From the IMG/VR virus record IMGVR_UViG_3300046821_000030, positions 1-25,849 of that record: 25,849 bases of DNA; one strand, given 5' to 3'. The notes beneath the pieces are model-generated. The model searched no databases. It saw only the letters and a program-made list of their open reading frames with translations, and was not told the origin of the DNA. A program made the position numbers and the translations under genes. Source of the stretch: a virus. This document shows positions 3,698 to 13,446 of this stretch, one piece after another. Positions within the stretch are counted from its first letter, which is position 1, and each line of letters starts with the position of its first letter.

Positions 3698-4270
3698 TTA
3701 CTTTATATCATCAAATATTGTTGGAGCTATTCCAAAAAATCTACTTAATGCTTCAATGGCATCTTCAACTGGATCAGAACTATCACTCTCACAATAGTAT
3801 TTAATCATGTCGGAAAACGCATCATCCATAGTCATATTTTCTTCTTCAAGGCTTTCTTTAATCGCTCGGACTTTCTTATTGTGCTTTTTATGCACCTTAG
3901 TCTTTCTTTTCTTTATTTCAATCTCAACTGGAAGTGGTTGTCCAGAAATAAGTCTTGCTGCAGGTGTTCCTACCTTAGAAGCAAAAACATAATCTCCCAT
4001 ATTGCTGGTAGTTGTTCCCATGGGATATGATACTGGACCTTCGGAACCAGCAACCATAACTTCTCCACCCTCATCTTCATTAACTTCATCCTTACCAATC
4101 CCAAGAAAGTTTTTAAGCACACCAACAACTAATGGATAGAATCTGGAACTCTCATCATCAATCTCATATTTCTTTTTAACCAAGCGTTCAGCTTTCTTCC
4201 AAAGTTTCTCAACCGTTTTTGGTTTCTTGTCAGTCTGCTTGGCGAAAGACTTCATTAATGGTGTTGGCAT
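3698..4270 (-). CDS. Conserved-looking unknown protein between neck and portal genes
   Basis: This 190-residue protein was not recognised by family. The first 60 residues form a lysine-rich helical segment (KKPKTVEKLWKKAERLVKKK) followed by a hydrophobic helix (YPLVVGVLKNFLGIG). The middle is Gly/Thr/Ser-rich (TTTSNMGDY), then comes a very basic stretch (KKRKTKVHKKHNKK). The C-terminal 50 residues are acidic and helical. The N-terminal pattern of an 'AKxTxKxxxxVExLWxKA' helix resembles small head- or packaging-associated proteins seen in other T4-like phages, but that is recollection, not a search. AAGGAAATACA before the ATG is a good ribosome binding site. Lying in the gp14-gp20 late cluster, it is probably a virion or assembly protein. 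Confidence 0.6.
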   Translation of the reverse strand: MPTPLMKSFAKQTDKKPKTVEKLWKKAERLVKKKYEIDDESSRFYPLVVGVLKNFLGIGKDEVNEDEGGEVMVAGSEGPVSYPMGTTTSNMGDYVFASKVGTPAARLISGQPLPVEIEIKKRKTKVHKKHNKKVRAIKESLEEENMTMDDAFSDMIKYYCESDSSDPVEDAIEALSRFFGIAPTIFDDIK

Positions 4271-7874: not shown

Positions 7875-8172
7875 CTTTTGGATCTCCATCATTTATATTT
7901 GTATTTAGTTTCGGAGGATATTTTTCCTTAACCTTGTCAGTAGCATATAGAACAGCATTTTTCAATTGTTTATCTATATTAACCATCTCTTCATCAAGAA
8001 CTTGTCGATACGCGGTCTCAATAACCGCTTCAATATCCAAATCATTATTAACCGTCATGTGCTGATCTGCAATTGCTACAATCTTGTCGATGTAAGTCCT
8101 TTCAGAATCAGTCAACTCAGCTTTGCTGTCATTTCTCTTTTTCTTTTCTCTATAATTTTTGAAACTTCCCAT
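7837..8172 (-). CDS. Unknown small charged protein
   Basis: This 111-residue protein was not recognised. It begins with a basic segment (MGSFKNYREKKKRNDSKAEL), continues as a helical acidic region (ADQHMTVNNDLDIEAVIETA, then YRQVLDEEMVNIDKQLKNAV), and ends with a polar tail that is probably disordered. AAGG lies 12 bases before the ATG, a slightly long spacing. It is the first gene after uvsY and a 95-base gap, and its end overlaps the next gene. No cysteine pairs, membrane segments or nucleotide-binding motifs are visible. Confidence 0.55.
   Translation of the reverse strand: MGSFKNYREKKKRNDSKAELTDSERTYIDKIVAIADQHMTVNNDLDIEAVIETAYRQVLDEEMVNIDKQLKNAVLYATDKVKEKYPPKLNTNINDGDPKDDNSRNVERTTK
7898..7909 (-). 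promoter_or_regulatory. Late-promoter-like motif before the gene at 7542-7874
   Basis: The minus strand reads ACTAAATACAAA inside the 3' end of the upstream gene, about 24 bases before the chosen start. It shares TAAATA with the other late-type motifs in this arm. Being within coding DNA, it may be chance. Confidence 0.25.
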
Positions 8173-8267: not shown

Positions 8268-8678
8268 TCAAGCACCATTCATCAATTTCTGCCAGTCAAT
8301 ATAGTTCTTTATTGCGAAGGAAAGATCCTTAATACTGTCTAAAGATTTGCCAACATATATCAACTGAACTTCTATCGAGTTTAATGTTGTACAGATTGTG
8401 ATGTACTTTTTATCGGCATAAATTTGTGATTCTACTTCAGTCTTTGAATCCCATCTGTATTCTGATTCAAACTTGTAAAACTTGTAGAGTGTTCCATACA
8501 TCTCACGCTGCTTATCTTCGGAAGACTTTTTGGCGGCATGTAAAGTAGCCAGAAGCTTCAAAAGAGACTGATGAACCGCGGCATACTCCATTAATTTTGT
8601 GGAGATATTATTGGCGTCAAATGTAAGTTTCTTTTCCAAATAAGTCTGCAACTGTAGAAACTCTTCTTCACTAAGCAT
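8268..8678 (-). CDS. uvsY: Recombination mediator UvsY
   Basis: This 136-residue protein matches T4 UvsY (137 residues), which loads the UvsX recombinase onto gp32-coated single-stranded DNA. The C-terminal segment LDSIKDLSFAIKNYIDWQKL lines up with T4 LDAIKSRGFAIKHIQDMRAF. A central SADK-like YADKKYITI block precedes it, and the whole protein is helical. The ATG at 8678 has AAAGGA 12 bases upstream. Its partners UvsX, gp32 and UvsW are all encoded in this window. Upstream on the minus strand lies the TnpB locus, whose putative RNA end approaches the uvsY leader, so the insertion may affect uvsY expression. Confidence 0.85.
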   Translation of the reverse strand: MLSEEEFLQLQTYLEKKLTFDANNISTKLMEYAAVHQSLLKLLATLHAAKKSSEDKQREMYGTLYKFYKFESEYRWDSKTEVESQIYADKKYITICTTLNSIEVQLIYVGKSLDSIKDLSFAIKNYIDWQKLMNGA

Positions 8679-8689
8679 TTAATTATTAT

Positions 8690-8885
8690 CCTTTATGAGA
8701 CACGAAGTGGCTCTATCTGTATGTAATCATCGACTATAAAATTAGTCGTATAGGTTATACCTACTTATTTAACGCTTCATCGCTTGTGCAGTCATTATCC
8801 TTACAGATAATAACTGTCTTACTTATGCTCGGCGTTTGTTTTGGTGTAGTGATTCCTGCACCAGAGAGGGTTAAACCCTCAGATA
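8690..8885 (-). ncRNA. Putative omega-RNA (TnpB guide RNA scaffold) at the tnpB 3' end
   Basis: TnpB proteins use an RNA made from the 3' end of their gene and the element's right end. Five hairpins follow one another here on the minus strand: GAGGGTTTAACCCTC (8866-8880), GGTG/CACC around 8842-8863, an 11-bp stem at 8789-8816, CGACTA/TAGTCG (8731-8748), and GAG-CAC/GTG-CTC (8697-8713). In the 8789-8816 stem one position is U-G in minus-strand RNA but a C-A mismatch on the plus strand, which favours the minus RNA. Three hairpins lie inside the tnpB coding end and two in the gap before uvsY. If the scaffold ends near 8697, the guide would read the uvsY ribosome binding site and start. Function is inferred from family knowledge. 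Confidence 0.5.
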
Positions 8886-9957
8886 AAATATTCTTCGCTG
8901 CATTTACATCCCTGTCGTGTATAGCTCCGCAGGAACATGACCAGACTCTATGGTGTAACTGAAGATTTTTATTAATCTGACCACAGCAAGAACAAGTCTT
9001 GGACGAGGGAAAAAATCTTCCAACCTTGATAAAGTCTTTACCATACCACTTACTTTTATACTCCAACATACTTATAAATGTACTCCAGGACTGTTCCGAG
9101 ATCTTTTTAGAAAGTCTTCGATTTTTGAGCATTCCAGAGATGTTTAAAGACTCCACACAAATCTTGTCAAAGGCTGTCACCAATCTCTTGGACAGATTAT
9201 GCTGGAAGAACTGTCTTTGATTAGTGACCTTCTGATGTAGGCGAGCAATCCTCTTACGGTTCCTCTCATATCTTGAGGATCCCTTAGTTTTCTTGGCAAA
9301 TCTGCGTTGTTCTAATTTTAACTTAGCTTGGTTCTCACAAAAGTTAAAATTATGTTTAGTTCCATCTGATAGTGTCACGAAGTCCTTGACACCAAGATCT
9401 ATTCCAACTGCTCTCCCTGTCTTAGGAAGATGATTGACATTTTCTTCTACCGCTATGCTGACAAAATACTGTCCAGCAGGGTTTTTAGAAACTGTACAAG
9501 AAAGTAATCTTGAGGACTTAGGAATATGTCTGTCAATAACTATGTCTACAAGACCAATCTTTTCTAAACGAATCTTGGAGCACCGGATATCGAACTTTTT
9601 GTTAGGAAGTCTATAGGAATTGTGTTTAGATTTCTTTTTAAAAGAAGGTCTTCCTACTTTAGATTTCCTTTTGGTATTAAAGAATTGACTTTTAAACTCC
9701 TGAATATCTCTATCTTTTTGTTGTAAGGCTCCGGAAGATACTTCTGACAAAAAGGAATGGACTTTCTTAGGGTTATTATATTTAATATAAGGTGCCGCAG
9801 AAGTATTAAAAGACTCAACAAAGAGATTCCATATAAATCGGACACATCCAAATGTTTGATTAATCTTTAAGATCTGATCATTAGATGGAAAGATTCTATA
9901 TTTGTAAGACTTATTCTGGATCACGAAAGTATTTATCACAACAATTTTGAGGATCAT
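8761..9957 (-). CDS. tnpB: TnpB, RNA-guided nuclease of the IS200/IS605 family
   Basis: This 398-residue protein is a TnpB, the RNA-guided DNA nuclease family ancestral to Cas12. The N-terminal block YKYRIFPSNDQ followed by CVRFIWNLFVE is typical. The RuvC residues are present: Asp187 in GIDLGVKD, Glu269 in CVESLNISGM, and Asp348 or Asp350 in HDRDVNAAKNIL. The zinc-binding Cys are C322/C325 and C341/C343; the second pair is CxC rather than the usual CxxC. The length is normal, so it looks intact. The C-terminal LTLSGAGITTPKQ segment is encoded within the predicted RNA scaffold. The ATG at 9957 has no Shine-Dalgarno; a GTG at about residue 12, just before the conserved block, is an alternative. 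No TnpA is in the window. Confidence 0.93.
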   Translation of the reverse strand: MILKIVVINTFVIQNKSYKYRIFPSNDQILKINQTFGCVRFIWNLFVESFNTSAAPYIKYNNPKKVHSFLSEVSSGALQQKDRDIQEFKSQFFNTKRKSKVGRPSFKKKSKHNSYRLPNKKFDIRCSKIRLEKIGLVDIVIDRHIPKSSRLLSCTVSKNPAGQYFVSIAVEENVNHLPKTGRAVGIDLGVKDFVTLSDGTKHNFNFCENQAKLKLEQRRFAKKTKGSSRYERNRKRIARLHQKVTNQRQFFQHNLSKRLVTAFDKICVESLNISGMLKNRRLSKKISEQSWSTFISMLEYKSKWYGKDFIKVGRFFPSSKTCSCCGQINKNLQLHHRVWSCSCGAIHDRDVNAAKNILSEGLTLSGAGITTPKQTPSISKTVIICKDNDCTSDEALNK

Positions 9958-9958
9958 T

Positions 9959-10720
9959 TAGGGCACAGAGTGGACCGTACCTGACCGATAGATCTAGTTA
10001 TTCACAATGAGTTAAGGCGTAGCCTAGTGTGATCTGAACGCAGTGAGGATCACACATGATATGAGAATGTATTAGACTGTGCCTAGAACATCCAGAGGAC
10101 CAATGAAGAGTATTTACATTGGATTTAAAGAATCTTGACAAGACCCTTGTGGTCTTAGGGCGCAGCCCTAAGAATTGTCAATAATATGGAGTGGAGCGAC
10201 TAGACAGAGTGATTGTCTATCAGGATCAGATAGATTCTCTGATGGAGCTTCACGGGAGAATTATTTGTAAGAATTTCTCGAGGAGGAAGTCTGACTGAGG
10301 AAGAAGTATTTGTTTTGGATTTTCGCTTCGCTCAAGTCACTGCGTGACTGTTCGTTTATTTTTTATAAGAATTAACGACTAACATTAATTAACAGAGCTT
10401 CGCCTTTACCTATATTCATGGAGCTCGTTTTGAATCGAGACCCTCATTTGATTTATAACTGATTATCTCTTCAGTTCTTGTCAAATGATTGAATATAAGT
10501 CAGGGATCGGCACTAAGTTCATTACTTAGTCAACAGGAATATCCGATAGCCTTTACCTCTGAACCCCTCAACACTTGCCTTTGAGCTTGGGTGTTTTGCA
10601 TCTCTGCATCATTCCAACTCGGGGTTCCTCAACATACAGACAGATTTGTTCTTACTCTAATTCCCGAGCCTGTATGTTATATGTTCTTCACTTTATAGTC
10701 CTCACGAAACATCATGGACT
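9959..10720. ncRNA. Large structured non-coding region of unknown class, upstream of tnpB
   Basis: No credible gene is seen here, but the DNA is packed with stems. Examples are 9959-9968/10077-10085 (9 bp, one bulge, enclosing a domain), 10027-10034/10048-10055 (8 bp), 10135-10140/10176-10181 enclosing the strong hairpin 10154-10172, 10201-10219, 10225-10243, and 10445-10451/10481-10487 enclosing 10457-10462/10471-10476. Others are 10506-10510/10543-10547 enclosing 10512-10530, 10561-10567/10621-10627 (7 bp) enclosing smaller hairpins, 10631-10639/10670-10678 (9 bp), and 10697-10701/10716-10720. Wobble pairs favour the minus strand in some stems and plus in others, so the strand is open. Candidates are an IStron-type group I intron, a giant phage RNA such as GOLLD or ROOL, or a new class. 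No tRNA or clear group I/II core was found. Confidence 0.5.
10334..10366 (+). terminator. Terminator-like hairpin inside the structured region
   Basis: AGTCAC TGC GTGACT forms a 6-bp hairpin (10335-10349) followed on the plus strand by GTTCGTTTATTTTTT. This would suit termination of a rightward transcript covering the left part of the structured region. The spacing between stem and T-run is longer than ideal, and the hairpin may simply be one of the RNA's many stems. Confidence 0.3.
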
Positions 10721-10770
10721 TACTACTATTTATTTACTTACTCGATTTACTTTCTCTGTTTCTTACAAAC

Positions 10771-10779
10771 ATTATATCA
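10771..10779 (-). promoter_or_regulatory. Extended -10 promoter candidate reading into the structured region
   Basis: The minus strand reads TGATATAAT, an extended -10 element (TGnTATAAT), directly after the stop of the small basic gene. No good -35 is present, which extended -10 promoters can tolerate. It would start an RNA near 10764 running leftward into the structured region and tnpB. It overlaps the TTGAT noted as a possible insertion target. Confidence 0.4.
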
Positions 10780-10782
10780 ATT

Positions 10783-11167: not shown

Positions 11168-12910
11168 ATGTACATAAAATTGATCAGCTTAAAGTTTAAG
11201 AACATCATGTCGTATGGAAACTACGTCACGGAGTTCAAGTTTGATGAAGGTCTATCTTTGATCTCAGCTAAGAATGGATGTGGAAAGACTACTATTCTCG
11301 AAGCACTATCATTCAACCTATTTGGTAAGCCTTACAGAAATATAAAAATCTCTGAGCTTATCAATAGAAAGAATAAGAAGAATCTCTACACAGAATCTCT
11401 ATTCCAAATTGACGGTAATAACTACACTGTTGTAAGAACTCTTGGACCAGCTAAACTTGAGATATACAAAGATGGTGTGATTCAAGAAAATCTTTCAGCA
11501 AAGAAGTTAGACCAAGAAGAAATCAATAAGCTTCTCGGAGTAGATTATAATATCTTCAAACTTATCATAGCCTTGTCTGTAAACTACAACAGACCTTTCC
11601 TATCATTAGGTGCTGGTGATAAAAGAGATGTTATGGAATCTATCTTCAATATCAAAGTATTTGGTGAGATGCTGTCCAAGTTGAAGAAAAGAATGTCTGC
11701 AGTTAAGAGTGAGAAGATGATCGTTGATGGATCTATCAAAACTCTTGAAGCATCCATTAAAGTACTTCATGGTCAAATCAAACAGATAGAACATAGTATG
11801 GACGACTTCGATTCTAAAAGAAATGCAGATAGTGATAGAGTAAAGAAGCTGCTTAAAGATGCAGATAAGAAACTAATATCACTTGAGAAATCTGCCAAAG
11901 AGTCTAAACAAAAGATGGAAGAGATAATAGTCGTTGATGTATCTGAAGAACTTTATGAGGTTCGTACAGAAATTTCAAAACTAGAATCTAAAGTTGCTGA
12001 ACTTAAAAAGCAACTGGCATTCTTTGATAAGCATGATGAGTGTCCTATGTGTGGTGTCGAAATGTCGGAAGATCATAAGAATAAGGAACTCTCAAAATTA
12101 AATAATGAGATTGATTCACTTCTACCTATGATTGATACGTTAAGAGCTACAAAGGCTCTCTATGACTCTCAAAACCGGCAGAACAATGATCTCATTCAAG
12201 ACAGAATGAATCACAGTAATCACATCTCAGAGTTAGTTTCCGAAGCCAAGACGGTTCTCAAAACAATCGAACTTTATAAGGCACAACTAACCGAGATAGA
12301 AACTAGAACATATTCATTGGACACCACAAGCATAAAAGATGAGTATGATACTCAGATTGCAGAGTATAAAAGAATAACTGCTCTGAGCGCCCAACTTCAA
12401 TCAGATATGATATTGAATGAGTACGCTGCCAAGATGTTAGATGATAATGGAATCAAGTCGTACTTCTTCAAGCGATTAATCCCTATTCTAAATAAGAAGA
12501 TAAATGAGTATCTGGAACTATTTGAACTTCCAGTTAAAATATCATTTAATGAGTTCATGGAAGAAAAGATCAGTATGCAATTGTCCAGTGATCTGGATAT
12601 ATCTTACATGAGCTTCTCTGAAGGCGAAAAGAAAAGAATAGATATTGCAATTCTTCTTTCCTTCATCGAGACTACAAAGATACTTTCAAATTGGAATTGC
12701 AATGTCATTATGTTTGACGAGGTACTTGATAACGCCACTGATTCGGAAGGACTTGATAAGTTGCTTTCATCCATAAAAGATTTGACTACAAGAGATTCCA
12801 AGCTTTGCTCATATATAATCTCACACAGAGATGCAGATTCTGATCTTTACGACAGAAAAGTTACAATAAAGAAAGTTGCTGGATTTTCCAAACTACAAGA
12901 GACCAAATGA
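11168..12910 (+). CDS. 46: Recombination nuclease subunit gp46 (Rad50/SbcC-like ATPase)
   Basis: This 580-residue protein is the ATPase subunit of the T4 gp46/gp47 complex, which resects DNA ends for recombination-dependent replication. The N-terminal Walker A is AKNGCGKTT (34-42), followed by long coiled-coil arms (about 165-285 and 300-400) around a zinc hook CPMC (Cys292, Cys295). The C-terminal ATPase half has the ABC signature FSEGEKKR and the Walker B segment NVIMFDEVLDN. Length is close to T4 gp46 (560). GAAGAAGGT precedes the ATG. The gene overlaps the gp55 start by ATGA, beginning an operon of overlapping genes that also contains the partner gp47. Confidence 0.95.
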   Translation: MYIKLISLKFKNIMSYGNYVTEFKFDEGLSLISAKNGCGKTTILEALSFNLFGKPYRNIKISELINRKNKKNLYTESLFQIDGNNYTVVRTLGPAKLEIYKDGVIQENLSAKKLDQEEINKLLGVDYNIFKLIIALSVNYNRPFLSLGAGDKRDVMESIFNIKVFGEMLSKLKKRMSAVKSEKMIVDGSIKTLEASIKVLHGQIKQIEHSMDDFDSKRNADSDRVKKLLKDADKKLISLEKSAKESKQKMEEIIVVDVSEELYEVRTEISKLESKVAELKKQLAFFDKHDECPMCGVEMSEDHKNKELSKLNNEIDSLLPMIDTLRATKALYDSQNRQNNDLIQDRMNHSNHISELVSEAKTVLKTIELYKAQLTEIETRTYSLDTTSIKDEYDTQIAEYKRITALSAQLQSDMILNEYAAKMLDDNGIKSYFFKRLIPILNKKINEYLELFELPVKISFNEFMEEKISMQLSSDLDISYMSFSEGEKKRIDIAILLSFIETTKILSNWNCNVIMFDEVLDNATDSEGLDKLLSSIKDLTTRDSKLCSYIISHRDADSDLYDRKVTIKKVAGFSKLQETK

Positions 12911-13446
12911 CTGAAATAATAGAACCGATAGAAAAAGTTAAGAAGAAGAAAAAAGGTTACTTTGATAACGAACACATGATAACCATGATGACGTTAAAGT
13001 TAAAGATCAGGGACTACCTCTTCATACAATTTCTCAAGGAAGAGAACGGTGAACCGACTAGAAAGAGAGGATTCAAACTTATTCAAGTGGATCCTACTCT
13101 TGACTATGATGGTGAAACTATTACTCTTGCTGAACTCAACAACCGTTATGATAAAGTGAATAACGAAGTTGGTAAGCTTTATGCTAAGGTTGCTGAAGGT
13201 ATGATGAAGAGACCAAACTTTATCAATTACCCACCAGATCAAAAGGTCGACATGATCTCCGATGCTTTGTTCTATATGTCCAGAGCTGGTGAGCGTTATG
13301 ATATTAAGCAACCAAATCCATTTGCATACTTCTCTCAGATTACATTCCATTCTTATCTCCAAAGTATTAAGAATATGAAGAAGAGAATCGGTATGCTTGT
13401 GAGTGTTGATCACCTAGAAAACTTTGACGGCTCTGGTGAAGAATGA
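12907..13446 (+). CDS. 55: Late transcription sigma factor gp55
   Basis: This 179-residue protein resembles T4 gp55 (185 residues), the small sigma-like factor that directs host RNA polymerase to late promoters. The clearest region is residues 95-160: VAEGMMKRPNFINYP, MISDALFYMSRAGERYD, NPFAYFSQITFHSYLQSIKN, then MKKR. It matches the T4 IAEGLSKRFNF, MIADGIEASIKGLHNFD and [23 protein letters not shown] blocks. A basic, lysine-rich N-terminus precedes it. The start overlaps gp46 (ATGA) and the stop overlaps gp47. Presence of gp55 fits the TAAATA motifs in front of the minus-strand genes. T4 also keeps this gene near 46 and 47. Confidence 0.88.
   Translation: MTEIIEPIEKVKKKKKGYFDNEHMITMMTLKLKIRDYLFIQFLKEENGEPTRKRGFKLIQVDPTLDYDGETITLAELNNRYDKVNNEVGKLYAKVAEGMMKRPNFINYPPDQKVDMISDALFYMSRAGERYDIKQPNPFAYFSQITFHSYLQSIKNMKKRIGMLVSVDHLENFDGSGEE

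What the first reader, a model, noticed from the sequence alone, without database searches (positions are those of the whole stretch)
8690..8885. Series of hairpins at the tnpB 3' end, with a U-G pair that fits only the minus-strand RNA
Five stems in about 190 bases run from the last 40 codons of tnpB into the gap before uvsY. The 11-bp stem at 8789-8816 is complete only in the minus-strand RNA, where one position is U-G; on the plus strand it is C-A. Structure overlapping the C-terminal coding region is what is known for TnpB omega-RNAs.
Basis: partly seen in the sequence, partly recalled or inferred. Interest (0 to 1): 0.72.

Follow-up and report, generated by a model that had tools for sequence, protein, structure and literature searches.

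The report
Guide RNA of a phage TnpB
The hairpins at the end of this phage's tnpB gene are the scaffold of the guide RNA (omega-RNA) that TnpB uses to cut DNA, shown by base pairs that change together across relatives; the kind of system is known and this is a new, diverged member in a T4-like phage.

Summary
The finding holds. A covariance model built from 15 tnpB 3' ends of other phages, without the window, finds window 8866-8768 on the minus strand (31.5 bits, E 2e-6; next best hit in the window 10.4 bits). A sequence-only version of that model gives 12 bits, so pairing carries much of the signal. In the relatives 19 of 28 pairs show compensatory changes, and 91% of cells pair against 32-43% when partners are slid. 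The core motif is read in three codon frames, or lies after the stop codon, in different relatives, so codon constraint does not explain it. The loop of stem 1 forms a covarying pseudoknot with the right-end terminus in 15 of 16 relatives. By that rule the window's right end is inferred at 8723, with the guide (AUACAGAUAGAGCCAC...) in the uvsY leader. TnpB has an intact D-E-D triad and zinc finger; no TnpA was found. This is a new member of a known kind. Expression, cutting and the TAM are untested.

The parts
8761..9957 (-). tnpB (ATG 9957; likelier start GTG 9924, 387 aa), intact D187/E269/D350 and CxxC..CxC zinc finger (numbering from ATG 9957)
   Evidence: Pfam and PHROGs; alignment with relatives; ISDra2 TnpB 8h1j E 3e-60; start inferred from homologue N-termini and TAAATA spacing
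9930..9935 (-). TAAATA, probable late-promoter element 11 nt before GTG 9924
   Evidence: same motif at exactly 11 nt in L035, L036, L037, L047; TAAATA within 40 nt upstream of 7/12 minus-strand and 1/15 plus-strand genes; gp55-like sigma in the window; inference
8768..8866 (-). omega-RNA scaffold core (stems 1, 2, 3)
   Evidence: held-out covariance model hit 31.5 bits, E 2e-6; structure covaries in relatives
8842..8863 (-). stem 1 hairpin UGGUG..CACCA with loop GAAUCA (8855-8850)
   Evidence: fold and model alignment
8832..8836 (-). stem 2, 5' side AACGC, pairs with 8775-8771
   Evidence: fold; equivalent helix covaries (helix 2)
8771..8775 (-). stem 2, 3' side GCGUU, in the GAAGCGUU motif
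   Evidence: equivalent helix 4: all ten modelled pairs have compensatory changes in relatives; model alignment
8751..8763 (-). 3' hairpin UAGGU-AUA-ACCUA, overlapping the stop codon
   Evidence: fold; position corresponds to the 3' hairpin of relatives; not tested by covariation in the window
8731..8748 (-). 3' hairpin CGACUA-AUUUUA-UAGUCG
   Evidence: fold; as above
8723..8729 (-). predicted right-end terminus UGAUUAC; UGAUU pairs with stem 1 loop AAUCA (8854-8850) as pseudoknot
   Evidence: pseudoknot rule in relatives; the one UGAUU in the searched stretch 8778-8690; inference
8703..8722 (-). predicted guide AUACAGAUAGAGCCACUUCG in the uvsY leader
   Evidence: follows from the predicted right end; relatives have unique sequence directly after the right end; inference
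8268..8678 (-). uvsY, the gene directly downstream
   Evidence: Pfam UvsY 3e-10, PHROG 231

Best explanation
The 3' end of tnpB, read on the minus strand (8866 to about 8723), encodes the scaffold of a TnpB omega-RNA (reRNA) with the ISDra2-like layout: stem 1, stem 2, a variable stem 3 hairpin, a 3' hairpin, and a pseudoknot between the stem 1 loop and the right end. Inferred working: the transcript runs through tnpB towards uvsY; TnpB binds the folded 3' part and trims its 5' side; the bases after the right end, in the uvsY leader, serve as guide. The RNP would cut alleles that lack the insertion, and repair would copy the element in, as in homing. Shown here: the scaffold, its strand, an intact nuclease, and the right-end plus variable-guide layout in relatives. 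Inferred: the exact right end and guide in the window, transcription, cutting and homing.
For: Held-out covariance model: window 8866-8768 minus, 31.5 bits, E 2e-6, next best 10.4 bits; sequence-only model only 12 bits. Covariation in relatives: 19 of 28 pairs compensatory, 90.9% of cells paired against 32-43% slid and 75% shuffled. Pseudoknot between stem 1 loop and right end: 63 of 64 inner cells paired in 16 relatives, no shuffle of 20,000 reached it. Motif in all three codon frames or after the stop. Strand bias 54 G-U to 12 A-C. Model hits in held-out tnpB loci at their 3' ends in tnpB sense. Layout as in ISDra2 omega-RNA (PMC10097598). Intact nuclease.
Against: No RNA data. The window's stem 1 is imperfect (5+2 bp) and its link lost part of the UGGAG motif. 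The right end rests on a 5-nt match with about 11% chance by composition. No empty site or close relative was found, so the guide and TAM are unverified. No Rfam family matches.
Confidence: 0.9

Rival explanations
1. Chance hairpins or codon bias at the end of a coding sequence.
For: Single-sequence folding is not exceptional in this window and does not choose a strand.
Against: Covariation with shuffle and slide controls, frame independence and the held-out hit.
Confidence: 0.01
2. A transcription terminator, mRNA 3' stability structure or uvsY leader regulator.
For: Hairpins lie between two genes read in the same direction; 8713-8697 is in the uvsY leader.
Against: No terminator-like site was found at 8690-8885. 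The conserved core lies inside tnpB coding sequence and occurs at tnpB 3' ends in front of unrelated genes. The 8713-8697 hairpin itself could still act on uvsY.
Confidence: 0.03
3. A decayed omega-RNA: the scaffold is a relic, and TnpB persists or acts without guided cutting.
For: Divergent stem 1 and link relative to relatives; no TnpA found; no empty site found.
Against: Stems 1-3 pair with the expected layout, the pseudoknot partner is present, and the nuclease residues are intact.
Confidence: 0.08

Closest known systems
ISDra2 TnpB omega-RNA (Deinococcus radiodurans; PMC10097598)
   Same: Overlaps the tnpB 3' end and continues to the right end; stem 1 with a loop that pairs with the last scaffold bases, stem 2, stem 3 with a variable distal part, a 3' stem, guide directly after; homologous nuclease (E 3e-60).
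   Different: No TnpA found beside it, two short 3' hairpins instead of one, different sequence at the right end (GAUUAC), resident in a phage next to uvsY; TAM unknown.
IS607-type phage elements in IMG/VR (L039, L040, L041, L043) and their TnpA-less relatives (L030-L037, L047)
   Same: Nearest relatives of the protein (45-53% identity), same RNA architecture and right-end rule.
   Different: L039, L040, L041 and L043 carry a serine recombinase gene directly upstream; none was found by the window's tnpB.
ISXfa1 IS607 reRNA (PMC10711439)
   Same: A TnpB reRNA of about 150 nt that extends past the transposon end.
   Different: There the right-flanking nucleotide is part of the scaffold and the TAM is GGG; neither was testable here.

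Membership tests
TnpB RNA-guided nuclease | RuvC D-E-D triad and TNB zinc finger | tested here: met
   D187, E269, D350 and the four cysteines conserved in alignment; match to ISDra2 TnpB
TnpB omega-RNA | structured RNA in tnpB sense overlapping the tnpB 3' end | tested here: met
   held-out model hit and covariation
TnpB omega-RNA | pseudoknot between the stem 1 loop and the scaffold 3' end | tested here: inconclusive
   covaries in relatives; the window has a 5-bp partner at 8729-8725, but a match has about 11% chance
TnpB omega-RNA | guide directly after the right end, different at each insertion | tested here: inconclusive
   met in relatives, with four copies in one phage having four guides; only one copy in this window
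TnpB omega-RNA | stable processed RNA bound to TnpB | not testable with these tools
   needs RNA sequencing
TnpB omega-RNA | guided, TAM-dependent DNA cleavage | not testable with these tools
   needs a cleavage assay
complete IS200/IS605 or IS607 transposon | TnpA transposase with the tnpB | tested here: not met
   no Y1 or serine TnpA among the window ORFs searched with Pfam or PHROGs; not every window ORF was searched and the record is a 25.8-kb fragment

The most novel reading that the evidence does not exclude
A TnpB lineage of T4-like phages may have lost its transposase and become a homing element that inserts directly behind phage late promoters (TAAATA), so that the target's own promoter drives tnpB and guide RNA and the guide is the leader of the next gene, here uvsY.
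Probability: 0.2. Interest if true: 0.65.

Novelty: new member of a known kind. Interest (0 to 1): 0.4.

Why it matters
It adds a structurally supported guide RNA for a phage TnpB clade for which no Rfam family matched here, shows the ISDra2-type pseudoknot by covariation in phages, and gives a testable guide sequence next to uvsY. If the homing reading holds, it would show how TnpB spreads in lytic phages without a transposase.

Tried and rejected
Rfam gave no relevant match at gathering or relaxed threshold. DNA similarity in phage records gave no match, so close empty sites could not be compared. Exact searches with the guides of L036 and L032 found only their own contigs. The window guide 16-mer matches 16 viral contigs, several of them copies of one sequence, without a shared motif before it across the different sites; this looks like chance. 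TAAATA as TAM could not be separated from a promoter: the conserved block at the left boundary of L208-L227 reaches beyond it. An alternative right end at GACUAA was dropped because it does not pair with the GAAU loop. A terminator reading was rejected. Searches were errors and gave no data.

Full report
What is there. The window is a 25.8-kb virus record of a T4-like phage: portal, head protease, head closure, uvsW and uvsY on the minus strand; SbcC/SbcD-like subunits, a late sigma factor and DNA polymerase on the plus strand. One tnpB lies at 8761-9957 on the minus strand, directly before uvsY. It matches ISDra2 TnpB (8h1j, E 3e-60) and keeps the catalytic D187, E269, D350 and the zinc cysteines.

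The observation. Folding alone is weak evidence: the plus strand folds as well, and other parts of the window are as structured.

Relatives. The nearest TnpBs are in IMG/VR contigs (45-53% identity). Their 3' ends carry the same order of elements: a hairpin, a 14-nt link ending in GAG, TAAGAC, a hairpin whose sequence differs between relatives, and GAAGCGUYUA. Each sequence folds on its own into much the same architecture. RNAalifold on 15 relatives, window left out, gives 28 pairs, 19 of them with compensatory changes. With the structure named, 90.9% of cells pair, against 75% in shuffles and 32-43% when partners are slid.

Held-out test. A covariance model from these 15 sequences, scored on every position of the window, has its best hit at 8866-8768 on the minus strand: 31.5 bits, E 2e-6; the next is 10.4 bits. 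The sequence-only model gives 12 bits at the same place. The model also hits the tnpB 3' ends of many held-out loci, bacterial ones included, in tnpB sense; two weak antisense hits (L222, L223) overlap strong sense hits.

Codon constraint. The GAA of the motif falls in codon frame 2 in 20 loci, frame 0 in 11 (the window among them), frame 1 in 3, and after the stop codon in 5. The RNA motif is therefore conserved independently of what it encodes.

Comparison with ISDra2. The cryo-EM structure (PMC10097598) has stem 1 whose loop pairs with the last bases of the scaffold, stem 2, stem 3a and a flexible stem 3b, stem 4, and a C-terminal tail that is disordered and dispensable. The phage RNAs follow this plan. 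In 16 relatives the stem 1 loop pairs with the right-end terminus in 63 of 64 inner positions, with G-C to A-U exchanges; no shuffle of 20,000 reached this. Outside the L030-L034 group the right ends were chosen by eye from the motif AYUAU, which fixes part of the pairing but not the covarying positions. In the L030-L034 group the right end is fixed independently by the point where copies stop matching, and a 243-kb phage has four copies, each with a different sequence after TTACTAT.

Right end and guide in the window. The stem 1 loop AAUCA (8854-8850) calls for UGAUU, which occurs once in the searched 3' stretch (8778-8690), at 8729-8725, after the 3' hairpins. The right end would then be 8723 and the guide AUACAGAUAGAGCCAC from 8722 downward, in the uvsY leader. 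A 5-nt match in 60 nt has about an 11% chance by composition, so this step is inferred, at roughly 0.75. The 8713-8697 hairpin overlaps this guide, and 8880-8866 lies 5' of the core.

Class of element. Four close relatives have a serine recombinase directly upstream, which points to IS607. No TnpA was found among the window ORFs searched. In L035, L036, L037, L047 and the window TAAATA stands exactly 11 nt before the tnpB start. In this phage TAAATA lies within 40 nt upstream of 7 of 12 minus-strand genes and 1 of 15 plus-strand genes, and a gp55-like late sigma is encoded, so it is probably the late promoter. Whether TAAATA is also the TAM could not be settled.

Verdict. Open points are expression, cleavage, the TAM, and whether it spreads by homing.

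Noticed in passing
window minus-strand genes, e.g. 8183, 7907, 5418, 4295, 1925: TAAATA lies within 40 nt upstream of 7 of 12 minus-strand genes but 1 of 15 plus-strand genes; a late sigma factor homologue is at 12907-13446. Probable late-promoter motif; tnpB and the gene at 8172 have it only 11 nt before the start, which would leave almost no leader.
   Followed up: partly
window 9924 versus 9957: The tnpB start is probably GTG 9924, where homologues begin, rather than ATG 9957.
   Followed up: partly
window 9958-10780: About 800 nt without a recognised gene, with strong hairpins, for example GTGTGATC..GATCACAC and TTGACAA..TTGTCAA enclosing CTTAGGGC/GCCCTAAG; it may hold a left end or be unrelated.
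   Followed up: no
L214, L217, L218, L219 (IMGVR_UViG_3300042560_001323): One 243-kb phage contig carries four copies of a related tnpB element, each followed by a different putative guide.
   Followed up: partly
L030:1153-1266 and 4096-4186: Two different omega-RNA-like tnpB 3' ends lie within 3 kb of one phage contig, one canonical and one of this clade.
   Followed up: no
L016:4349-5575: Another phage contig with uvsW has a tnpB of the same clade about 2.4 kb upstream of uvsW, not in the same place as in the window.
   Followed up: no
window 8713-8697: A GAG.CAC-UUC-GUG.CUC hairpin sits in the uvsY leader over the inferred guide; its role is unknown.
   Followed up: no
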